Shown: positions 8,310 to 59,296, counted from the first letter of the stretch. The stretch: 64,000 nucleotides of DNA from Bacillota bacterium (GCA_030019365.1 JASEFA010000012.1:1-64000); one strand, 5' to 3'. Notes: a model not told the origin generated them from the letters alone. Numbers and translations: made by a program.

Positions 8310-8597
8310 TTACCTGCATCCTGCTCCTCTGCGACCGTACGTGCTCGCGCGACCTGCCATCAGGTCCAGCCGGCCCGCCAGACCCCAGGGCGCCACCGGC
8401 GCGAGCGGAGGCACGGCCTCAGAGGCACCATATCGCCTCACGTCCACGATGCGGAAGGCACGGCCGCTCAGGGCCTCCGCCTCCAGGAACCCCGCCAGGG
8501 CCGCCGCTATGGCGGCCACGATCTTCCCCGGCACCGGCTCCCGGGCGCTGCGCAGACGAACCTCGGGGGCATCGGCTACCTGTGCCAAAGCATCCAC
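8310..8597 (-). CDS. Small carboxylase-associated protein, OadG-tail-like
   Basis: A 95-residue protein between the carboxyltransferase and biotin carrier genes. The pattern VAAIAAALAGFLE then WGLAGRLDLMAGRA resembles the cytosolic part of OadG/gamma-type decarboxylase subunits in Clostridia, but no membrane helix is visible. It starts at GTG 8597, or possibly TTG 8588 which has a better-placed GGAAGGTGG. Its function, perhaps holding the complex together, is inferred from position. Confidence 0.6.
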   Translation of the reverse strand: MDALAQVADAPEVRLRSAREPVPGKIVAAIAAALAGFLEAEALSGRAFRIVDVRRYGASEAVPPLAPVAPWGLAGRLDLMAGRASTYGRRGAGCR

Positions 8598-8603
8598 CTT
8601 CCG

Positions 8604-10172
8604 CTACACGGGAATGTTGCCGTGTTTCTTGGCCGGCCGCGACTCCCGTTTCTGGCTCAGGGCCTCCAGGGCCCGGGCCACGTGCTCACGCGTGCGGGCG
8701 GGGTCGACCACCACATCCACATAACCCCGGGCGGCCGCCACATAGGGGTTGGCAAACCGCTCCCGGTATTCTGCGATCTTCTCCTGGCGCAGCCGGGCGG
8801 GATCCTCCGCCCGCGAGATCTCATCCCGAAAGATAATGTTGGCTGCTCCCTCGGGACCCATTACCGCGATCTCGGCGGTGGGCCAGGCCAGGGCCTGGTC
8901 GCACCCCAGGGCGCGGGCGCACATGGCCAGGTAAGCCCCGCCATACGCCTTGCGCAGGATTACCGTGATCTTGGGGACTGTGGCCTCCGAGTAAGCATAC
9001 AGCAGCTTGGCCCCATGCCTGATGATGCCCCCATACTCCTGGGCGGTCCCGGGCAGATACCCCGGGGTATCCACCAGGGTGAGGAGGGGGATGTTGAAGG
9101 CGTCGCAGAAGCGCACGAAGCGGGCGGCCTTGTCGGAGGCGTTGATGTCCAGGCACCCCGCCAGAACGCGGGGCTGGTTGGCCACCACCCCCACCACCCG
9201 GCCCCCTATGCGTCCGAAACCCACCGCGATGTTCGCCGCATAGCGGGCGTGCACTTCCAGGAAGTCGCCCCCATCCAGCAGGGACAGGATGACATCGTGG
9301 ACGTCGTAGGGCCGGTTGGGATCGGTGGGGACCACCCCGCGCAGGCCGGGTTCCTCCCTTTCCACCGGATCTCCCGTCAGCACCACTGGGGGATCTTCCA
9401 TGTTGTTGGAGGGCAGGAACGAGAGCAGGCGCCGCACCATCTGCAGGCACTGGGGGTCGTCTTCGGCGAAAAAGTGGGCCACCCCGCTCACCGTGCTATG
9501 GGTGGCGGCTCCCCCGAGCTCCTCCATGCTCACCTCTTCCCCGGTGACGGCCTTGATGACCTGGGGCCCGGTGATGAACATCTGGCTGGTGCCCTGCACC
9601 ATGAAGACGAAATCGGTGAGGGCGGGCGAGTAGACGGCACCCCCGGCGCAGGGGCCCATGATCACCGAGATCTGGGGTACCACCCCCGACGAGACGGTAT
9701 TGCGGAAGAATATCTCCCCGTACCCGTTGAGGGCATCCACCCCTTCCTGGATGCGCGCCCCTCCCGAATCGTTGAGGCCCACGAAGGGGGCGCCCGCCCG
9801 CAGGGCCGTGTCCATGACCTTGGTGATCTTGCGGGCGTGCATCTCCCCCAGGCTGCCGCCGATGACGGTGAAGTCCTGGGAGAAGGCGTAGACGATGCGG
9901 CCGTCCACCCGGCCGTAACCCGTCACCACCCCCTCGCCGGGGGCCTCCACTTCCGGCATACCGAACTCAGTGCAGCGGTGGCGCACGAAGGGATCTAGCT
10001 CCGTGAAAGTCCCGGGGTCAAACAGGAGGTCGAGCCTTTCCCGCGCCGTCAGCTTGCCGGCGCGGTGCTGCTTCTCGATGCGCCCGGGCCCGCCCCCGGC
10101 CTGCACCTTCTCCAGGCGAGAGGCCAGTTCCGCCAGCTTGTGTTCCATCGTAATCTCTGACTGTTCGTTCAT
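8604..10172 (-). CDS. Acyl-CoA carboxyltransferase (methylmalonyl-CoA decarboxylase alpha / propionyl-CoA carboxylase beta)
   Basis: A carboxyltransferase of about 522 residues with both crotonase-like halves. Signatures are GKLTARERLDLLFDPGTF, GGSLGEMHARKI, GPCAGGAVYSPAL and KAYGGAYLAMCARALG near the C terminus. It transfers CO2 between biotin and propionyl-/methylmalonyl-CoA. The ATG at 10172 follows GGGAG at 5 bases; a GTG four codons earlier is an alternative. The neighbouring epimerase and mutase genes make methylmalonyl-CoA the likely substrate. Confidence 0.93.
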   Translation of the reverse strand: MNEQSEITMEHKLAELASRLEKVQAGGGPGRIEKQHRAGKLTARERLDLLFDPGTFTELDPFVRHRCTEFGMPEVEAPGEGVVTGYGRVDGRIVYAFSQDFTVIGGSLGEMHARKITKVMDTALRAGAPFVGLNDSGGARIQEGVDALNGYGEIFFRNTVSSGVVPQISVIMGPCAGGAVYSPALTDFVFMVQGTSQMFITGPQVIKAVTGEEVSMEELGGAATHSTVSGVAHFFAEDDPQCLQMVRRLLSFLPSNNMEDPPVVLTGDPVEREEPGLRGVVPTDPNRPYDVHDVILSLLDGGDFLEVHARYAANIAVGFGRIGGRVVGVVANQPRVLAGCLDINASDKAARFVRFCDAFNIPLLTLVDTPGYLPGTAQEYGGIIRHGAKLLYAYSEATVPKITVILRKAYGGAYLAMCARALGCDQALAWPTAEIAVMGPEGAANIIFRDEISRAEDPARLRQEKIAEYRERFANPYVAAARGYVDVVVDPARTREHVARALEALSQKRESRPAKKHGNIPV

Positions 10173-51092: not shown

Positions 51093-51174
51093 CCACCTCC
51101 TACCGCTGGCTCAGGGCACTCCGGTCTTTCCGACAGCCTCAACCACAAAAGCGCGCCGAGAGGAGGAAAGAACC

Positions 51175-51855
51175 GTGGAGGTGCCGCGCGAAGCCATATT
51201 GCAGAGGGACGGCAAGACGTACGCCTTCATCGCCAGGCTGCCGACCGCAGGCCTGCTCACTCCCCAGATCCTGCGGCGTCTGGCCGATGTGGCCGAGAAG
51301 TACGCCATCCCCGCCATCAAGCTCAGTTCCGCCCAGCGCGTGGTGCTGGCGGGGGTCAAACCCGAGGACATCCCCGCCATCCAGCAGGACCTGGGGACGG
51401 GACTGGCACCGGCGCTGGGACCCTGCGTGCACTACGTCAAGGCCTGCCCCGGCACCACTCTCTGCCGCCTCGGACAGCAGGATTCCCTGGCCCTGGCCGC
51501 CCGGCTGGACGAGATGTTCATCGGTAAGCTCGACCTTCCCCACAAATTCAAGTTCGGTATCTCGGGTTGCCCCATGAACTGCTCGGAGTCCTACACCCTG
51601 GACTTCGGCGCATTCGGCAAAGCCAGGGGCTGGACGGTGGTGGTGGGCGGCAAGGGCGGAGCGCGTCCCCGCCTGGGCCAGGTGCTGACCGAAAACACGA
51701 GCAGCGACGAGGTGGTCGACCTGGCCGGGCGGGTAATCGCCGCCTACCGGGCCCTGGGATCCGGCCGCGAGCGCCTGGCGCGTACCATCGAGAGGGTGGG
51801 CTTCGAGAGATTCCGTGCCACGGTGCTCGAACCCGGGGAGGCGGGTAGCTCATGA
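51175..51855 (+). CDS. Single-domain siroheme/4Fe-4S reductase (small sulfite/nitrite reductase type)
   Basis: A 226-residue protein. Cysteine motifs ACPGTTLCRLG (C-x5-C) and SGCPMNCSES (C-x3-C) are those binding the coupled siroheme and 4Fe-4S cluster. The size fits low-molecular-weight assimilatory-type sulfite reductases. GTG 51175 follows AGAGGAGG. It overlaps nrfA by 4 bases, so it is expressed with it. The substrate could be sulfite or nitrite. Confidence 0.85.
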   Translation: MEVPREAILQRDGKTYAFIARLPTAGLLTPQILRRLADVAEKYAIPAIKLSSAQRVVLAGVKPEDIPAIQQDLGTGLAPALGPCVHYVKACPGTTLCRLGQQDSLALAARLDEMFIGKLDLPHKFKFGISGCPMNCSESYTLDFGAFGKARGWTVVVGGKGGARPRLGQVLTENTSSDEVVDLAGRVIAAYRALGSGRERLARTIERVGFERFRATVLEPGEAGSS

Positions 51856-53147
51856 CTCCGGCCAGGCTGAGGTCCATCACCCTCCTCCTGCTGGCCGGGC
51901 TGGTGCTGGTGGCGGTCGCCCTGGCGGGCTGGTCCCTGTGGACCATGCGCAACCTGGAATCGCGCGCCGTGGCCATCAGTGCCCAGATCGCCCCCGACGA
52001 GACGGACCCGACTGCCTTCGGCAGGTACTATCCGCTCGAGTACGACAGTTACCGCGAGAACTCCCAGATGTCGCGTGGCCCCAGTAAGTACGGGGGATCG
52101 GAGCCGTACGACCGGCTGGCCGAGTACCCCTACATGAAGACTCTCTGGAAGGGTTACTCCTTCGAAAAGGGATACAACGAGGACCGGGGCCACGTCTACT
52201 CACTGGAAGACGTGAATTCCACCCCCCGCAGCCCTACCCAGGCGGTGTGCCTGACCTGTAAGAGTGCGGACGTCCCCGGCCTGATAAGGAAGTACGACGA
52301 GAAGTATTACAGCATGCCCTTCGCTCATCTGTCCGCCGAGGCCACCCACCCCATCGGCTGCAGTGACTGCCATGACCCCCGCACCATGGAATTGCGCATC
52401 ACCCGCCCCGCCTTCCGGGAAGCCATGGCGCGCCGTGGGGTGGACGTGGACCGGGCCACCCGCCGGGAAATGCGCACCTACGTGTGCGCCCAGTGCCACG
52501 TGGAGTACTACTTCCAGCCCGGCACCAGCAAACTGACCTTCCCGTGGGACAAGGGCTTCGACCCCGAAGAGGAATACGCCTGCTACCAGGACCTGGGATT
52601 CCACGACTGGGTCCACCCCGGTGCGGGCACGCCGCTTCTCAAGGCCCAGCACCCTGACTTCGAAGTCTTCCAGGGCAGCGTCCACCAGGCGGCAGGGCTG
52701 GCCTGTGCCGACTGCCACATGCCCTACCGGCGGGAAGGGAACGTGAAGGCCACTTCTCACTGGTGGACCAGTCCCCTGCGCCACCTGGATGGGACCTGCA
52801 CCGTATGCCACACCGAGGACGCAGAACTCCTCAAGCAGCGGGTGTTTTACACCCAGGACCGCGTCAAGGACCTCCTGGACCGCGCCGGCCGGGCCCTGGT
52901 GGCCGCCATCGACGCCATGGAGCGGGCCACCGCGCTGCCTGACGCTGACGCAGAGGCCATCCGGAAGGCGAGAGACCTGCACCGCGAGGCCCAGTGGTAC
53001 TGGGACTGGTGCTCGGCTGAGAACTCCACCGGGTTCCACAATCCCCAAAAGATCATGGCCACCCTGGGCAAGGCCATCGACCTGGCCCACCAGGCCCGCG
53101 CGGCCGCCCTTGCTGCCGTCCACGCCGAGGCTTCCCGGGGCCGCTGA
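51852..53147 (+). CDS. nrfA: Ammonia-forming cytochrome c nitrite reductase NrfA
   Basis: A 431-residue pentaheme cytochrome with an N-terminal anchor helix. Heme 1 is the active-site CLTCK (CxxCK), then CSDCH, CAQCH, CADCH and CTVCH. QGSVHQAAGLACADCHMPY holds the distal His. It reduces nitrite (and NO, hydroxylamine) to ammonium outside the membrane. The N terminus is an uncleaved helix, as in Gram-positive NrfA. Its ATG overlaps the previous stop (ATGA). Confidence 0.96.
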   Translation: MTPARLRSITLLLLAGLVLVAVALAGWSLWTMRNLESRAVAISAQIAPDETDPTAFGRYYPLEYDSYRENSQMSRGPSKYGGSEPYDRLAEYPYMKTLWKGYSFEKGYNEDRGHVYSLEDVNSTPRSPTQAVCLTCKSADVPGLIRKYDEKYYSMPFAHLSAEATHPIGCSDCHDPRTMELRITRPAFREAMARRGVDVDRATRREMRTYVCAQCHVEYYFQPGTSKLTFPWDKGFDPEEEYACYQDLGFHDWVHPGAGTPLLKAQHPDFEVFQGSVHQAAGLACADCHMPYRREGNVKATSHWWTSPLRHLDGTCTVCHTEDAELLKQRVFYTQDRVKDLLDRAGRALVAAIDAMERATALPDADAEAIRKARDLHREAQWYWDWCSAENSTGFHNPQKIMATLGKAIDLAHQARAAALAAVHAEASRGR

Positions 53148-53257
53148 GGGAGTCCTGGGGGCAGCCGGCACGCCCAACAGCACCCCGCACGCGGACGGGC
53201 TACGCACCCACTGCATCCGACTTCGGTCCCCGCCGGCACTGCGGCGTCTGTGCCAGG

Positions 53258-53385
53258 ATGATCCCGCGCACCGCGGCGCCTGCGCCCCGATCACCACCCG
53301 AATCGAGGCGCCTGCGCCCCGATCACCCCCCGAATCGAGGCGCCTCCGCCCCGGTCACCCCCCGGATCGAGGCACCTACGCCCCG
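53258..53385. repeat. 32-bp tandem repeat, cluster A (four units)
   Basis: Four contiguous 32-bp units at 53258-53289, 53290-53321, 53322-53353 and 53354-53385. Units 2 and 3 differ at 2 positions. Conserved core is GGCGCCTGCGCCCCGATCAC. A degenerate unit may precede at 53226-53257. It lies between the convergent nrfA and ctaB genes. A related cluster is at 57794-57954. Confidence 0.9.
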
Positions 53386-53436
53386 ATCTGGGCGGCGGGG
53401 TCATTACAGGCAGGGCGCAGGGGGCGACCTGGGGGG

Positions 53437-54360
53437 TTAGATGACGGGGCGTAGGGAGACAAGGAGGAAGAGGGCGGCCAGATACGGGCTGCTCAGCTTG
53501 AACAGGAGCCAGGCCCGCTCAGCGGTGGGCCTGAGCATCACCAGCGCGCTCACCACCAGCACGGGAGCCTGCAACAGGGCCAGGGCCACGGTGGCCCCGG
53601 GGCCGAGGTGCACCACGCGGGGCAGGGCTGACGCCAGCGCGCACAGGGCCAGGGCGGACCATCCCACGCACCGCGCCGCCTGCTCCACCCCGATGACCGC
53701 GGGGAGCATGGGGACCCCCGCGCGGCGGTAGTCGTCCACGTAGCGGATGGTCAGGCTCCACACGTGGATGGGGGTCCAGGCCACCACCAGCGCGGCCAGC
53801 AAAAGTGACGAAGCGCTGACCGCCAGGCCGCTCACCGCCGACGCCACCACCATCACCGGTGCCCCGCCTCCCGGCGATCCCAGGATCACATTCCAGGGAG
53901 TCCTGGGCTTGGACCACCCGTTGTAGATGAGGGCCACGTCCACCACCCCGAAGAGCAGCCAGAAGGTGCTCCAGGGATGCCCGGTGAGTAGGGTGAGCCC
54001 GACCGCGACTGCAACCAGAGTCATGCCGAGCCCCAGGCTCTCCTCCGGTGCCAGGCGGCCCGACGGCACCGGGCGGTGCCTGGTACGGCTCATGATGGCG
54101 TCCATGCGCCGGTCCACGTAGCCGGTGATGGCGTTGATCCCCATGCTGCCGGCCAGCACCGCCAGGGTTCCCAGCAAGAGACGCCAGGAAGCGCCGGCCC
54201 GCGCGGCGGCGGGGACTTCACCGAAGAGGACGTAGATCCCTGCTGCCAGCCCTACGAAGGTGAGCAGCACCACCGAGCGCAGCTTGGTGGCCTCCACCAT
54301 GGCCACCGCCCGGTGCGTCCACCTCACCCGCCCGGCGAGCACGGCAGTCTCACCGTTCAT
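53437..54360 (-). CDS. ctaB: Protoheme IX farnesyltransferase (heme O synthase)
   Basis: A 307-residue UbiA-family membrane enzyme. NAITGYVDRRMDAIMSRTRH gives the Asp-rich farnesyl site, followed by RPVPSG, and YNGWSKPRTPWNVILGSPGG plus WSLTIRYVDDYRRAGVPMLP the second. ATG 54360 has GGAGGTG at 6 bases; the frame extends further upstream but only as low-complexity sequence antisense-like to its neighbour. It would make heme O for a heme-copper-type enzyme, presumably the adjacent gene. Confidence 0.9.
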   Translation of the reverse strand: MNGETAVLAGRVRWTHRAVAMVEATKLRSVVLLTFVGLAAGIYVLFGEVPAAARAGASWRLLLGTLAVLAGSMGINAITGYVDRRMDAIMSRTRHRPVPSGRLAPEESLGLGMTLVAVAVGLTLLTGHPWSTFWLLFGVVDVALIYNGWSKPRTPWNVILGSPGGGAPVMVVASAVSGLAVSASSLLLAALVVAWTPIHVWSLTIRYVDDYRRAGVPMLPAVIGVEQAARCVGWSALALCALASALPRVVHLGPGATVALALLQAPVLVVSALVMLRPTAERAWLLFKLSSPYLAALFLLVSLRPVI

Positions 54361-55924
54361 CTGCTTCACCTCCCGCCCGTACGGTCCGGTCTGCTGGTGC
54401 GGGGCTGCTCCCGGCTTGTGTGAGGGTACCTGCTGCGGGCGCGGGGGCACTCCCCGCTTGTGCGGGGGCACCTGCTCCCGGTGCCAGGGCAGCGGCCGCT
54501 TGCGGGGCACGGCCAGCCTGACTCAAGTGTAGATACCATTCGCCCCGGGGTCGGAACAGGTCCACCAGCCGCCATCCCAGGAAGACGGCCAGCACGATGA
54601 GGAAAGTGCCCAGGCCCACGTCGATGAACCACCAGGTCCAGGTCATATCCACGCCCGGAGGTCCGAACATGTAAACCACGGCGAAGGCGAAGGCTAAGTC
54701 GGCACCCAGCAGCACACCCCAGCCCAGGGTCCGCCGGATCCACCCCCGCTGCCCCAGATAGTCGGCCACCAGGAAAAGCACGATGGTGGCGCACAGGGTG
54801 GCGAGTACGTGCCAGTGACCGCTCAGGAACCGCCGCTCGTACTCGGCGGGGATCACCCGGAAGTACTCATCGAGGTTGAAGGCCACGTACATGCCCGGGA
54901 AGGTCACCACGAAGTTGACGTAGATCTGCTGGAACAGCATCCCGAAGCGTAAGGGGTCTCCCACCGCCGCGGCCAACCGTCGCCCCGGCGGCGCTCCCCG
55001 CGCGACCTCCGTCCACGCGTATATGACCAGCAGCAACGCCGCCGGCAATACCAGGGACGCGCCCACGTAGATGGCAGTGTGGGCCCCCTCCCACACCGTC
55101 ACCGACCAGCAGGCCAGGGCCATGATGCTGCTGCCCACGATGGCGATGGGCATGGCCACCGCGTGCAGTACGCCCTTGAAGTCCACGTAGCGCCCCACCA
55201 CCAGCATGATGGCCACGGCGATGAGCGCCAGCATGATGTGCAGGTGCCCGATGATGGCAAGCTGTGCCACGGTGTGGTGGGGTGCGCGGATGGCGTCCTC
55301 GGCCAGGAAAGCCTCGAATCCGTTACCGAAGTACGCTGCGGCCCCGGCGCCCAGCGCGGCCGAACCCAGGGTGAGGACCGCCACGGTGAAGAAGGCCACC
55401 CGCTCCAGGGAAATGCGGCCCCAGTGGGCGTAAGCGGGATCGGTGTTGGGATGGCGGGCCGGCCACAGCCCGTGGGCCAGCACCACGCCGGCATAGAACA
55501 CCAGGGTGAGGCCGGCCACGAAGAGGCCGTGCAGGATCCAGCTCCTGTACAGGTAGGCGAACGCCAGCCCACAGAGGCTGCTCACCATGTACCCGGTCGT
55601 GATGGTGGTCCGCACGGTGCGCACGTGCCAGGGGCTGGTGGGCACCAGTTCGAGTATGAAATACGTGATGGCCGCCGCAAAGGGCATGGCCAGGGCGTGA
55701 TACAGCATGATCTTACGCCCCACCGCCTCCGCCTCCACCAGGCGGAGGGGCAGGGCGGCGGCGATGCCCAGGTCACGGAGCGGCCCGGAGAGAGTCGACA
55801 GCACGGCCACCAGCAGCGCATCCCAGGCGGTGGCCATCAGTACCAGTCCCCGCGTGGTCCCGAAGAGGTAGCGAAGCCGCTTGCTCAGTCCCGCCAAGGA
55901 GATCGCCCCCGCTACATACGACAT
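54350..55924 (-). CDS. Polytopic His-rich membrane protein resembling heme-copper oxidase/NO reductase subunit I
   Basis: A 524-residue protein with about 12 membrane helices. His residues lie in helices: MLYHALAMPF (76), LHGLFVAG (132), APHHTVAQLAIIGHLHIML (216, 217, 227, 229), LHAVAMPI (254) and SGHWHVLATL (370, 372). This pattern recalls subunit I of heme-copper enzymes but the canonical WxxGHPxVY or NOR motifs are not present. The C-terminal 60 residues are Ala/Pro repeats. It is coupled to ctaB (11-base overlap). A palindromic FNR-type box lies 38-51 bases upstream. No clear Shine-Dalgarno; the start is uncertain. Confidence 0.6.
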   Translation of the reverse strand: MSYVAGAISLAGLSKRLRYLFGTTRGLVLMATAWDALLVAVLSTLSGPLRDLGIAAALPLRLVEAEAVGRKIMLYHALAMPFAAAITYFILELVPTSPWHVRTVRTTITTGYMVSSLCGLAFAYLYRSWILHGLFVAGLTLVFYAGVVLAHGLWPARHPNTDPAYAHWGRISLERVAFFTVAVLTLGSAALGAGAAAYFGNGFEAFLAEDAIRAPHHTVAQLAIIGHLHIMLALIAVAIMLVVGRYVDFKGVLHAVAMPIAIVGSSIMALACWSVTVWEGAHTAIYVGASLVLPAALLLVIYAWTEVARGAPPGRRLAAAVGDPLRFGMLFQQIYVNFVVTFPGMYVAFNLDEYFRVIPAEYERRFLSGHWHVLATLCATIVLFLVADYLGQRGWIRRTLGWGVLLGADLAFAFAVVYMFGPPGVDMTWTWWFIDVGLGTFLIVLAVFLGWRLVDLFRPRGEWYLHLSQAGRAPQAAAALAPGAGAPAQAGSAPAPAAGTLTQAGSSPAPADRTVRAGGEADER

Positions 55925-55961
55925 CTGATGTTACCCTAAACGACGGGACCGTGCCGACTCA

Positions 55962-55975
55962 TTGACTATGGTCAA
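55962..55975. promoter_or_regulatory. FNR/CRP-family operator TTGAC-N4-GTCAA
   Basis: TTGACTATGGTCAA is a perfect palindrome of the FNR/DNR class. Its centre is 44.5 bases upstream of the ATG of the oxidase-like gene, close to where a class II activator site would be for a short leader. The regulator gene (56170-56955) is next door. Confidence 0.75.
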
Positions 55976-56040
55976 TTTGCACGCCGGCCAGCCCGGCCGG
56001 GTCGACTATGCTGAGTTCCATGTGGTTGTGCCTCCCCCGG

Positions 56041-56138
56041 CCGATCTCTGCGGGCCAATCCCCGGCGGCTGACCCCTGCAGGCTGACGCCTGCGGGCCGA
56101 TCCGTGCGGGCTGATCCCTGCGGGCCCATCCGTGCGGG
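56041..56138. repeat. Seven tandem 14-bp repeats
   Basis: Seven contiguous units with consensus C(T/C)GATCC(C/G)TGCGGG, for example 56111-56124 CTGATCCCTGCGGG. They sit between the regulator gene and the FNR-type box ahead of the oxidase-like gene. Units differ at 1-5 positions. No reading frame uses them. Confidence 0.9.
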
Positions 56139-56169
56139 CTGGCCGGTCGGCACCTCCCCTCGCTGCGCC

Positions 56170-56955
56170 TCAGTTGAGGCCGGCGAGACGCCGCAACGCA
56201 GGCAGGTCTCTGATCGTAATGGCCTGACCGCGTGTCTCCACCACCCCGGTGGCCTTGAGGGAAGTGAGGGCGCGCACCGCCGTCTCCTTGGTAACGCCCA
56301 GGATATCCGCCATGCGCTGACGGTGCAGCCGTATCACCACCCCTCCCCCGCCCCCGTCACCACCGTCACCGCCCGGTTCCCCCTCGGCGAGGCGCACCAG
56401 CAAACGTGCCAGTCGCTGCCGGCAGTTGGTGGTGGCCAGTTCCCGCAGGCGCACGTAAGACTCGTCCAGCAGGTCGGCCATCACGTCCAGCAGAGCCCGC
56501 GCCAGGTCCGGACAGCGGGCCAGCAACTCGTCGTGAATCCCCGCGGGAAAATGACATACTTCACAATCACTGACGGCCAGCACGCTGTAGCAACTGGACC
56601 GCCGTGCCCCGTTGAACTGGCAGCCCCCGATCACCTCACCGGGATGGGCGTAGCGGACGGTGTGCTCCCGCCCCTCCTCGTCCGACAGGAAAACGCGCGC
56701 CGTACCCTCGCGGAGGACGTACAGGCCGTCCACCGGCTCCCCTTCCCGCAGGATGAACTCACCCGCACGGAAGTGGCGCAGCAGCGAGCAACTGGCCAGC
56801 GGTTCCACCTGGCCATCCCTGAGCACGAAGTGAAACGGGCGGCCCGGCAGGGCAGCCGGGCAATTGCTGCAGCGGGCCGGTCCCCTGCTGCGCACCAGCG
56901 CATCCCCCCTGTGTGCTCCCTTCGACACAAAGGGGGATGTGTCCTGGCGCGCCAC
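56170..56955 (-). CDS. CRP/FNR-family regulator
   Basis: A 261-residue regulator with a cyclic-nucleotide-type beta roll (FILREGEPVDGLYVLREGTA; HPGEVIGGCQF) and a C-terminal HTH (MADILGVTKETAVRALTSLK). Cysteines C29, C32, C56, C112, C122, C131 and C134 make an iron-sulfur or other thiol sensor plausible; the FNR N-terminal spacing is only partly kept. The recognition helix has E-x2-VR where FNR has E-x2-SR. A Gly-rich insert (GGDGGDGGGG) precedes the HTH. It likely controls the two membrane-protein genes through TTGAC-N4-GTCAA. Confidence 0.88.
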   Translation of the reverse strand: MARQDTSPFVSKGAHRGDALVRSRGPARCSNCPAALPGRPFHFVLRDGQVEPLASCSLLRHFRAGEFILREGEPVDGLYVLREGTARVFLSDEEGREHTVRYAHPGEVIGGCQFNGARRSSCYSVLAVSDCEVCHFPAGIHDELLARCPDLARALLDVMADLLDESYVRLRELATTNCRQRLARLLVRLAEGEPGGDGGDGGGGGVVIRLHRQRMADILGVTKETAVRALTSLKATGVVETRGQAITIRDLPALRRLAGLN

Positions 56956-56987
56956 TCCCCGACGCGCCCGCGGCCGCCCCTTGTGGG

Positions 56988-57617
56988 TTACGCTTGCCCT
57001 GCCGACCTGCTCCTCGTGAATCCCAGGGCGAAGCTGAGGGTCATGAGGAATAGGACGGGAGCGAGTATGGCGAAGATGAAGCTAGCCGGGAGAATCGGTC
57101 TGCCCGCCTTGAGGAAGGCCAGGGCAATCCCCCCGATCCCGATCAGCGTGCCGCCCACGGTGACCAGGGCGAACGGCGGCCTCGCCCGACCCCGCCGGAT
57201 GGCTGCCAGGGGCAGGAAGAAGATGGTGAGGCCGGCCGCGGAATGCACGATGGCGAGCACGGCGGTCCCCAGGCCAGCAGGTCCCACGAAGCGGGTGGCG
57301 GCAATGCCCAGCAGCCCAACCACGGCGAAGGTCAGGTACGTGACCCGGTAGCTGGGGAAGTGCTGGGCCACCAGACCCGTGGCCAGGGCCAGGGGGATCA
57401 GGGCCGCCACGATCACCACCAGGGGGCTGGCCAGGACACCGTAGCCAAAGGCGATGAGCAGCAGCCCGGCCACCAGGAGAACACCAAATGACAGCGTGTA
57501 GTAAACGTTGTGGCTGGCCTCGCCCCCCGCCCGGCGGTGCTCTCCGGCGAAGAACCACACCAGGTAGGCAGCCACCAGGCCGGTGGCAAGCAGAACCACC
57601 CTGTCGAACCCGCCCAT
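56988..57617 (-). CDS. Six-helix membrane protein of unknown function
   Basis: A 209-residue membrane protein with about 6 helices. Histidines in or near helices are in GEASHNVYYTLSFG, LVAQHFPSYRV and AIVHSAAGLTIF, which could ligate heme or metal. No family is recognised. ATG 57617 follows AAGGAGGG at 7 bases. A TTGAC-N4-GTCAA box 76-89 bases upstream places it in the same regulon as the oxidase-like gene. Confidence 0.7.
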   Translation of the reverse strand: MGGFDRVVLLATGLVAAYLVWFFAGEHRRAGGEASHNVYYTLSFGVLLVAGLLLIAFGYGVLASPLVVIVAALIPLALATGLVAQHFPSYRVTYLTFAVVGLLGIAATRFVGPAGLGTAVLAIVHSAAGLTIFFLPLAAIRRGRARPPFALVTVGGTLIGIGGIALAFLKAGRPILPASFIFAILAPVLFLMTLSFALGFTRSRSAGQA

Positions 57618-57692
57618 AGGAAAACCCTCCTTCCCGAATGGGGGTGGCACTCGCCCCCACCCTCAGCTTAGGGAGAACACCCTCCCCCGGCA

Positions 57693-57706
57693 TTGACGAA
57701 CGTCAA
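57693..57706. promoter_or_regulatory. FNR/CRP-family operator TTGAC-N4-GTCAA
   Basis: TTGACGAACGTCAA is a second perfect palindrome with the same half-site as 55962-55975. It lies upstream of the six-helix membrane protein gene; a weak -10 (TAAGCT, 57670-57665) is at the right distance for class II activation. Confidence 0.75.
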
Positions 57707-57793: not shown

Positions 57794-57954
57794 GTCCGCC
57801 GTACCCACCGGGGTCTATACACCCACGATCGCCGCCGGACCAGGGTGTATACACCCCAATCGCCACCCGGATCGCGGTCCCTGCACCCCGATCACCGCAC
57901 GCACCCGGGTCTATGCACCGCGATCACCACCCCAATTGGGGTGCCTGCACCGCG
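57794..57954. repeat. 32-bp tandem repeat, cluster B (five units)
   Basis: Units at 57794-57827 (34 bp), 57828-57858 (31), 57859-57890 (32), 57891-57922 (32) and 57923-57954 (32). They share the (A/G)TCACC...CCTGCACC(C/G)CG frame of cluster A. The last unit has a perfect 14-bp palindrome ACCCCAATTGGGGT in its centre. Located just upstream of the MarR promoter. Confidence 0.85.
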
Positions 57955-57977
57955 ATCGGGTTTGCTGAAGGGGGGTA

Positions 57978-58012
57978 TTGACAGGACCGATTAACAGGGT
58001 TATATTTTAACC
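57978..58012 (+). promoter_or_regulatory. SigA promoter with overlapping inverted repeat, upstream of marR-type gene
   Basis: TTGACA (57978-57983) and TATATT (58001-58006) with 17 bases spacing make a near-consensus SigA promoter. The inverted repeat GGTTA-N5-TAACC (57998-58012) covers the -10, a good place for a MarR autorepressor. A 5-prime leader of about 45 bases follows. Confidence 0.8.
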
Positions 58013-58058: not shown

Positions 58059-58877
58059 ATGCCAGGGACCCCATCCCCCGACGCCACCACCGTGCAGACC
58101 AGGCTGACGGAACTCTTCTCCCGCGTGCTGCCCCATGCCGGCGATGGGAACGCCCGGATCTCGGCCAGCCAGCTCGCCTGTCTTCACTACCTAGGCACTC
58201 ACCCCGGAAGCACGGTCACGGACGTGGCGGGAGGGCTCCGCATCAGCAATCCCGCTGCCACCAAACTGGTGGACCGCCTGGAAGCCCACGGCCTGGTGGT
58301 GCGCCTACCCCGTACGGGCGACCGCCGCCAGGTACGCCCGGCCCTCACCCCGCGCGGGCGGGAAACCCTCGTCGAAGCCACCCGCAAGCGTGACCTGGCC
58401 CTGCGCCGCGTCCTCGAACGCATGGACCCCGAGGCCAGGCGGGCACTGGAGGCAGGGCTCCGCGGCTTCCTTGAGGCGGCCCTTCAGGAGCCGGCTGACC
58501 TGGAGCGGGTGTGCCTGCAGTGCGGGACCGAGCACGTCCCCTGGTGCCCGCTGAACGAACTCCACGCACAGCTCACCGGCCGCACCCTGCCGGCAGAGGC
58601 ATCGTCCGCGGACTCGCCCAGCAAACAGGGCGAGCTGAAGAGGCCGAGGAAGGGCGACCCGACGAGGCCGGCGGGAGATCATCGGACGAGGCCGGAGGAG
58701 GCTCACCCGACGAGGCCGGCGGGGTCGATGAGGCCCGAGGAGGGCCGCCCGAAGAGGCGAGGGGAGGGCGACCCCACGACGCCGAGCGAGGGCCAGCAGA
58801 AGAGGCCGGGGGAGGGCCGCCCGATGAGGCCGGGGGAGGGCCGCCCGATGAGGCCGGAGGAGGAGGCGAGGACATGA
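58059..58877 (+). CDS. MarR-family regulator with Cys motif and long repetitive tail
   Basis: A 272-residue protein. Residues 1-145 are a MarR winged helix (SASQLACLHYLGTHPG; RISNPAATKLVDRLEAHGLV; RTGDRRQVRPALTPRG). VCLQCGTEHVPWCPLNEL (C152, C155, C163) may bind a metal or cluster. The last 90 residues are Arg/Pro/Glu/Gly repeats (RPGEGRPMRPGEGRPM) encoded by 24-bp DNA repeats. GGAAGGAGG precedes the ATG. It overlaps the Rrf2 gene by 4 bases. Confidence 0.85.
   Translation: MPGTPSPDATTVQTRLTELFSRVLPHAGDGNARISASQLACLHYLGTHPGSTVTDVAGGLRISNPAATKLVDRLEAHGLVVRLPRTGDRRQVRPALTPRGRETLVEATRKRDLALRRVLERMDPEARRALEAGLRGFLEAALQEPADLERVCLQCGTEHVPWCPLNELHAQLTGRTLPAEASSADSPSKQGELKRPRKGDPTRPAGDHRTRPEEAHPTRPAGSMRPEEGRPKRRGEGDPTTPSEGQQKRPGEGRPMRPGEGRPMRPEEEART
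58640..58873 (+). repeat. Imperfect tandem repeats in the marR-type gene tail, 24-bp unit at the end
   Basis: GA-rich imperfect repeats built on GAGGCCGG(G/A)GGAGG, with two exact 24-bp units at 58802-58825 and 58826-58849. In the MarR frame they read RPGEGRPM; in the +2 frame they read PDEAGG and run directly into the Rrf2 protein. Confidence 0.8.
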
Positions 58878-59296
58878 GGCTGAGCAGGCAGTCTGACTAT
58901 GCCATCCGGCTGGTCCTCGACCTCGCCCGGCAGCCCGACCACAGCGGAGACATCAAAGGGGTGGCCGCCCGTCAGGGTGCGCCGGCGCCCTACCTGGCCA
59001 AGATCACCCAGGCCCTGGCCCGGGCCGGCCTGGTCGTGGCTACCCGCGGGGCCCGAGGAGGAATCCGGCTCGCCCGCCCTCCCGCCCGTATCACCCTGCA
59101 CGATGTCGTGGAGGCAGTGGAGGGCCCCATCGTCTACAACCGGTGCCTGCTGTGGCCCGGCGAATGCGACCCCTCCCGGCCCTGCCCCCTGCACCCCGTG
59201 CTCGGGGGACTGGCGCGGGCGGTATCGGACTACCTCAAATCGATCGACTTCGCCCATCTGGCCTCCCTCCACCGGGGGTCGCAGGAAGGACGGTGA
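58874..59296 (+). CDS. Rrf2-family regulator, NsrR-like
   Basis: A 140-residue Rrf2 protein: MRLSRQSDYAIRLVLDLA, GAPAPYLAKITQALARAGLV, TRGARGGIRLAR and LHDVVEAVEG. Three Cys are arranged as CLLWPGECDPSRPC (C-x6-C-x5-C), close to the cluster-binding pattern in NsrR and IscR. NsrR senses NO. The adjacent NO-related genes (hemerythrin, possible NOR remnant) favour NsrR. Start has GGAGGAGG upstream and overlaps the MarR stop (ATGA). Confidence 0.85.
   Translation: MRLSRQSDYAIRLVLDLARQPDHSGDIKGVAARQGAPAPYLAKITQALARAGLVVATRGARGGIRLARPPARITLHDVVEAVEGPIVYNRCLLWPGECDPSRPCPLHPVLGGLARAVSDYLKSIDFAHLASLHRGSQEGR

What the first reader, a model, noticed from the sequence alone, without database searches (positions are those of the whole stretch)
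53437..57706. Unrecognised heme-copper-oxidase-like membrane protein in a nitrite/NO regulon
Seen: a 12-helix protein with paired GHLHIM and GHWHVL motifs and other helix His, coupled to a heme O synthase gene, next to an FNR-type regulator, a six-helix His-containing membrane protein, nrfHA, an NsrR-like regulator and a hemerythrin. Canonical oxidase or NOR motifs are missing. Inference: a new type of NO- or O2-reacting heme enzyme needing heme O, possibly replacing a lost qNOR.
Basis: partly seen in the sequence, partly recalled or inferred. Interest (0 to 1): 0.72.

Follow-up and report, generated by a model that had tools for sequence, protein, structure and literature searches.

The report
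Hidden heme-copper-oxidase-like nitrite-stress protein family
A bacterial membrane protein that no database family recognises folds like the enzymes that burn oxygen or nitric oxide, carries seven unchanging metal-binding histidines in a new pattern, travels with its own heme-making gene, and may be an overlooked nitric-oxide-handling enzyme, shared mainly by one large group of uncultured bacteria.

Summary
The 524-aa protein at 54350-55924(-) matches no usable Pfam, NCBIfam or PDB sequence, and HMM-HMM comparison sees neither oxidases nor NnrS, although the same comparison links NnrS to oxidases. Its AlphaFold model is nevertheless a heme-copper oxidase (HCO) fold (Z 25.8 to cbb3 CcoN, 396 residues, 3.5 A, 10% identity). 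At least 114 relatives exist, mostly in Anaerolineae. Seven histidines are invariant: helix II, the start of IV, two in VI, the start of VIII, HxH in X. One His of the canonical CuB pair is lost. Helix VI and the III-IV loop gain one each, possibly an extra site in the normally empty pore A. Heme O synthase follows the gene in 72 of 80 loci. This genome has no other HCO and no heme A synthase, so heme O most likely serves this protein. A conserved FNR-type box precedes it. The setting is nitrite/NO: nrfHA, an NsrR-like regulator, DUF438-hemerythrin. The sister species' intact qNOR is deleted here by exactly 2.2 kb. Thermanaerothrix daxensis (NirS plus NrfA, no known NOR) also carries it. Most likely a heme-O NO-consuming membrane enzyme; substrate and cofactors are untested.

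The parts
54350..55924 (-). HCO-fold membrane protein (524 aa): 12 TM; invariant H76 (TM2), H132 (start of TM4), H227+H229 (TM6), H282 (start of TM8), H370+H372 (TM10)
   Evidence: no usable Pfam/NCBIfam/PDB sequence match
53437..54360 (-). heme O synthase (CtaB/CyoE-like UbiA prenyltransferase), start overlapping the end of the HCO-like gene
   Evidence: PF01040 E 3.5e-40; TIGR01473 179 bits against cut-off 210.3; a homologue lies downstream in 72 of 80 loci, always same strand
56170..56955 (-). Crp/FNR-family regulator with CxxC and further Cys (C29, C32, C112, C122, also seen in L013); likely Fe-S sensor (inferred)
   Evidence: PF00027 and PF13545; homologue within 60 of 80 loci
56988..57617 (-). 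six-TM protein with one invariant His (H136 of the 220-aa ORF); possible partner subunit or assembly factor
   Evidence: homologues in 57 of 80 loci, same strand; H136 in 83/83 sequences; no Pfam match
55962..55975 (.). Crp/FNR-type palindrome TTGACTATGGTCAA, 38 bp upstream of the HCO-like gene
   Evidence: same kind of box upstream in 20 of 81 relatives, 0.35 expected
57693..57706 (.). Crp/FNR-type palindrome TTGACGAACGTCAA upstream of the six-TM gene
   Evidence: one of only four exact sites in the whole genome
50628..51092 (+). nrfH, small subunit of ammonia-forming nitrite reductase
   Evidence: TIGR03153 E 2e-33
51852..53147 (+). nrfA, pentaheme nitrite reductase
   Evidence: PF02335 E 1.8e-131
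58871..59296 (+). Rrf2-family regulator with three Cys (NsrR/IscR type)
   Evidence: PF02082, TIGR00738
59369..59507 (+). scar of a deleted qNOR gene: first codons joined to the last ~40 codons; breakpoint 59382/59383
   Evidence: blastn against sister species G002 shows 2,200 bp missing; intact qNOR 778 aa in L122
59951..60700 (+). DUF438-hemerythrin protein (RIC/YtfE-like)
   Evidence: PF04282 and PF01814

Best explanation
The protein is the catalytic-type subunit of an unrecognised, deeply divergent family of HCO-fold membrane proteins. It most likely binds heme O made by the coupled ctaB, and most likely consumes nitric oxide (NO reductase or detoxification, electrons probably from quinol) when an FNR-type regulator senses low oxygen or NO. 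Proposed chemistry: H370 binds a catalytic heme (as the first His of helix X does in HCOs). H282 and a helix VI His (most likely H229) hold a metal facing it. H372 and probably H76 bind a second, electron-donating heme. H227 and H132 are extra and may form another site in pore A. Shown here by computation: fold, invariant His, operon, promoter boxes, absence of other HCO and of heme A synthase in this genome, the qNOR deletion, nitrite/NO gene context. Inferred: cofactors, electron donor, substrate. Rough likelihoods: HCO-fold heme protein about 0.93, heme O about 0.8, NO as main substrate about 0.45.
For: Fold: model pLDDT 86.7, pTM 0.86; the top PDB matches are HCO/NOR chains, Z 25.8 cbb3, 23.7 cNOR, 23.2 aa3. 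His: 7 of 7 invariant in 86 sequences and 13 more loci. Fragment model 222-460: canonical CuB His of A-, B- and C-type structures falls at position 230, 229 in one cbb3 structure. Heme O: ctaB in 72/80 loci, same strand 72/72; own genome has no PF00115 and no CtaA. Regulation: box upstream in 20/81 loci against 0.35 expected; one of the four genomic boxes precedes an AhbD-type heme b synthase. NO context: nrfHA, Rrf2, DUF438-HHE; intact qNOR in the sister locus, deleted here; a divergent relative beside a flavodiiron NO reductase-like protein, another beside DUF438-HHE and a PF00115 protein. In 301 Chloroflexota genomes full-length NrfA occurs in 10/13 carriers and 11/288 others, strong NirS hits in 6/13 and 2/288. 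T. daxensis has NirS and NrfA and only an A-type HCO (PMC4653793).
Against: No NO or O2 chemistry can be tested here. The NOR-defining helix VI Glu/Gln/Asn/Asp is absent and the helix VII-VIII HH pair is A281-H282. Six of 13 carriers already have an eNOR-type enzyme. Two NirS genomes (G563, G675) have neither this family nor a recognised NOR. Co-occurrence is not corrected for kinship. Sequence profiles do not connect the family to HCOs. No coordinates were available, so no ligand distances were measured.
Confidence: 0.5

Rival explanations
1. An oxygen-reducing or oxygen-scavenging enzyme of HCO type, protecting anaerobes from micro-oxic stress; NO neighbours are there only because FNR-type regulators control both.
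For: HCO fold; FNR-type box and regulator; several carriers have no other HCO (G000, G001, G531, G455, G459); H282-xxx-Y286 has the His/Tyr spacing of the oxidase cross-link and Tyr is in 84/86.
Against: No Tyr at the canonical helix VI position; most Chloroflexota carriers already have an A-type oxidase; neighbours in the divergent lineages are NO-type; the most divergent relatives lack Y286.
Confidence: 0.2
2. A non-catalytic heme protein: NO/nitrite sensor, NO-tolerance factor or heme carrier, working like NnrS rather than like an oxidase.
For: One CuB His is lost; NnrS is a known HCO-related 12-TM protein of the NO response (recalled); no cytochrome c, CuA or quinone-site subunit is evident in the operon.
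Against: All seven His and a dedicated ctaB are kept over great divergence; NnrS-like proteins keep about two His and are not known to need heme O; no sequence link to NnrS.
Confidence: 0.2
3. The operon's product acts on another small molecule (nitrite, hydroxylamine, N2O or sulfur species), with the SUMF1-like lipoprotein as extracytoplasmic partner in Chloroflexota.
For: SUMF1-like lipoprotein in 76/80 loci, fused to the HCO-like protein in G186; active-site pattern unlike any known NOR or oxidase.
Against: The SUMF1 protein is not found near the gene in the window's genus; no known HCO-fold enzyme acts on these substrates (general knowledge).
Confidence: 0.1

Closest known systems
Heme-copper oxidase/NOR catalytic subunit (PF00115): cbb3 CcoN, cNOR NorB, aa3 subunit I
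   Same: 12-TM fold and helix order (Z 22-26); His in helix II, helix VI, the VII-VIII loop and HxH in helix X at similar spacing; linked heme O synthase
   Different: No sequence-profile match; helix VII-VIII HH is A281-H282; extra invariant H227 and H132; no Tyr/Glu/Gln/Asn/Asp at the helix VI active-site position; no CuA or cytochrome c subunit
qNOR (quinol-dependent NO reductase)
   Same: Single-chain membrane protein in a nitrite/NO locus; the sister species has both side by side
   Different: No N-terminal cytochrome-like domain; NOR Glu and HLWVE/HHYY motifs absent; no PF00115 match
NnrS / 'HCO homology' proteins (Pei et al. 2014, recalled; paper not held)
   Same: 12-TM relatives of HCOs tied to NO and denitrification
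   Different: No PF05940 match and no HMM-HMM link; NnrS-like sequences fetched here are linked to HCOs at 97.8% probability (E 8e-13) and keep about two His, against seven; heme O synthase coupling
eNOR/sNOR/gNOR/CuANOR (divergent NORs)
   Same: HCO-fold enzymes for NO, some in Anaerolineae
   Different: Those keep the HH pair and carry Q/N/D in helix VI (Table A4 of PMC8756737); here Met231 or Ala233 falls there

Membership tests
HCO superfamily (PF00115) | 12-TM catalytic-subunit fold | tested here: met
   AlphaFold pLDDT 86.7; VIA-align Z 25.8, 396 residues, 3.5 A; Foldseek top 10 all HCO/NOR but E 6e-3 and weaker
HCO superfamily (PF00115) | match to the family sequence profile | tested here: not met
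   (50 members); hhalign probability at most about 3%
HCO superfamily (PF00115) | heme ligands: His in helix II and HxH in helix X | tested here: met
   H76 in TM2, H370-x-H372 in TM10, invariant; exact helix II register not measured
HCO superfamily (PF00115) | three CuB/FeB His (helix VI plus HH in the VII-VIII loop) | tested here: not met
   A281-H282 in place of HH in all relatives aligned; helix VI has two His (H227, H229)
HCO superfamily (PF00115) | active-site Tyr (oxidases) or E/Q/N/D (NORs) at helix VI His+4 | tested here: not met
   Met231 (H227+4) or Ala233 (H229+4); criteria from Table A4 of PMC8756737
HCO superfamily (PF00115) | bound hemes and CuB or FeB | not testable with these tools
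   needs spectroscopy or structure
NnrS | PF05940 profile match | tested here: not met
   hhalign to fetched NnrS-like sequences 0.5% probability
qNOR/cNOR | helix VI Glu, HH pair, cytochrome c(-like) domain or subunit | tested here: not met
   sequence against the sister qNOR
Heme O synthase (CtaB/CyoE), linked gene | UbiA fold profile and heme o synthase equivalog | tested here: inconclusive
   PF01040 met; TIGR01473 is best but under cut-off: 179 of 210.3 in the window, 210.0 in T. daxensis

The most novel reading that the evidence does not exclude
An HCO-fold enzyme with a third cofactor site. Besides the usual pore B site (H370, H229, H282) and the electron-donor heme (H372, perhaps H76), the invariant H227 and H132 sit at the pseudo-threefold equivalents of H370 and H282 and would place a further heme or metal in pore A, empty in every HCO known to me. 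It would be a three-site heme-O NO-handling enzyme, possibly the missing NO reductase of NirS-bearing Anaerolineae such as T. daxensis.
Probability: 0.27. Interest if true: 0.9.

Novelty: new variant of a known kind. Interest (0 to 1): 0.74.

Why it matters
HCOs and NORs underlie aerobic respiration and denitrification, and gene surveys find them by sequence profile. A whole family with the same fold, a different His pattern and its own heme O synthase has escaped those profiles. If it reduces NO it would fill the missing step in NirS-carrying Anaerolineae such as T. daxensis and change N2O or NO budgets inferred from metagenomes. The altered ligand set (one CuB His lost, two gained in pore A) would test how much of the binuclear centre is really needed and how the threefold HCO fold evolved.

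Tried and rejected
Ordinary PF00115, NnrS or other known family: no profile match for it or for 50 relatives. The weak Pfam hits (DUF6368, DUF1269, DUF898) are below cut-offs and differ between members. HMM-HMM alignment to oxidase, cbb3-type and NOR sets gave no significant hit in local or global mode. NnrS-like proteins worked as a positive control for the method (HCO link E 8e-13) but are not linked to this family. Deciding the helix VI ligand and the helix II register by coordinates failed because no model coordinates are given out. A fragment fold was used to read the register: 230 plus or minus 1, nearer H229 than H227. Internal-repeat alignment links units 2 and 3 clearly (E 7e-7, H227/H229 onto H370/H372) but unit 1 only weakly and with H76 at the 'second His' position, so H76 could face pore A instead of pore C; left open. 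No paper found describes the family; Pei et al. 2014 on HCO-homology proteins, which might mention it, is not held.

Full report
Observation. The 524-aa protein at 54350-55924(-) has no usable match in Pfam, NCBIfam or PDB sequences, alone or as a 50-member family. The start of the heme O synthase gene overlaps its end.

Family. One sister species carries a 95% identical copy and another an 81% copy; one further relative within the class carries two homologues, at 44% and 30%. A scan of 84,980 species genomes matched at least 114 loci, mostly Chloroflexota (Anaerolineae), with a few Bacillota; one locus titled Bacteroidota may be a binning error. In even samples the family was in 4 of 398 genomes of the window's phylum and 13 of 301 Chloroflexota genomes. 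Seven His (H76, H132, H227, H229, H282, H370, H372) are present in all 86 aligned sequences and in all 13 later loci, including ones only distantly related.

Fold. AlphaFold with 50 relatives gives pLDDT 86.7 and pTM 0.86. The best PDB matches are HCOs and NORs. The in-house aligner gives Z 25.8 to cbb3 CcoN over 396 residues at 3.5 A, 23.7 to cNOR and 23.2 to aa3, far above the range the tool warns about for helical bundles. His order and spacing follow the HCO pattern: helix II 76, helix VI 227/229, VII-VIII loop 282, helix X 370/372. A separately folded fragment (222-460) puts the canonical CuB His of A-, B- and C-type enzymes at position 230, and at 229 in one cbb3 structure (canonical numbers H240 bovine, H284 R. 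sphaeroides, H233 ba3, H207 cbb3 are from general knowledge). H229 is therefore the likelier metal ligand, but a one-residue uncertainty remains.

What differs. The canonical HH pair is A281-H282. The helix VI residue that is Y in oxidases, E in cNOR/qNOR, Q in eNOR, N or D in others (Table A4 of PMC8756737) is Met231 or Ala233 here. H227 and H132 have no counterpart in HCOs known to me. Units 2 and 3 of the protein align with each other at E 7e-7, mapping H227/H229 onto H370/H372. H132 maps onto H282 in the weaker unit 1/unit 2 alignment. By the threefold symmetry of the HCO fold (general knowledge) H227 and H132 would line pore A. Helices III-VI are as conserved as those around pores B and C (1.33, 1.31, 1.35 bits). 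This is inference, not measurement.

Relation to known families. HMM-HMM comparison detects no link to HCOs or NnrS. The same test links NnrS-like proteins to HCOs at E 8e-13. So the family lies further in sequence from HCOs than NnrS does, while keeping far more of the ligand His.

Heme O. In 72 of 80 loci a CtaB-type prenyltransferase lies downstream on the same strand. This genome (97.8% complete) has no PF00115 protein and no CtaA, so its heme O synthase has no other known client. A second species of the genus also lacks PF00115. Other conserved neighbours: SUMF1-like lipoprotein 76/80 (not in the window), Crp/FNR regulator 60/80, a homologue of the window's six-TM protein 57/80.

Regulation. 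Perfect palindromes TTGAC-N4-GTCAA precede the HCO-like gene and the six-TM gene. Only four exact sites exist in the genome, against two for the reversed control pattern. One of the other two precedes an AhbD-type heme b synthase. Boxes of this type lie within 400 bp upstream of the invariant R16 codon in 20 of 81 relatives, 0.35 expected from the rest of the same loci.

Nitrogen context. The window has nrfHA, an Rrf2 regulator and DUF438-hemerythrin. The sister species has an intact 778-aa qNOR between the last two; here exactly 2,200 bp of it are gone, breakpoint 59382/59383. A divergent relative sits next to a flavodiiron protein (best NCBIfam model: anaerobic NO reductase flavorubredoxin, under cut-off) and another next to DUF438-hemerythrin and a PF00115 protein. 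Among 301 Chloroflexota genomes, full-length NrfA is in 10 of 13 carriers against 11 of 288 others and strong NirS hits in 6 of 13 against 2 of 288 (Fisher p 6e-11 and 5e-8; kinship not corrected). T. daxensis, an isolate, has NirS and NrfA, and its genome paper names an A-family HCO and bd oxidase but no NOR (PMC4653793); its only PF00115 protein carries the oxidase motif HPAVY. Against a simple gap-filling story: six carriers have an eNOR-type HPAQQ enzyme too, and two NirS genomes have neither.

Conclusion. An unrecognised HCO-fold family is well supported; heme O use is likely; NO consumption is the best guess at about 0.45; the pore A site is a striking but unmeasured possibility. It is filed as a new variant of the HCO kind and not as a member of PF00115, NOR or NnrS, because the profile, the HH pair and the active-site residue were tested and not met.

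Noticed in passing
window 53202-53436 and 57796-57985: Two arrays with a 32-bp period, the only two found in the 64-kb window with that test, flank the operon exactly (convergent gap after nrfA, divergent gap before the six-TM gene) and look related.
   Followed up: partly
window 56048-56141: A degenerate 14/28-bp tandem array lies in the gap upstream of the HCO-like gene.
   Followed up: no
window 51130-51855(+): A small siroheme-type nitrite/sulfite reductase-like protein (NIR_SIR domains) sits between nrfH and nrfA.
   Followed up: no
L125 (G001:C17) 8418-10071: A third species has a decayed second copy of the locus (intact six-TM gene, fragments of the HCO-like gene and nrfA) plus an intact HCO-like gene elsewhere (C6).
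   Followed up: partly
L090 583-2994(-): In G186 the HCO-like protein and the SUMF1-like lipoprotein are one 804-aa open frame.
   Followed up: no
L141 2977-4314(-): The PF00115 protein beside a divergent relative reads GLDMVADGN where the helix VI metal His is expected, possibly Asp for His; HH and HxH are kept.
   Followed up: no
L175 1501-2624(+): An AhbD-type radical-SAM heme b synthase in this genome is preceded by one of four TTGAC-N4-GTCAA boxes, suggesting a small heme regulon.
   Followed up: partly
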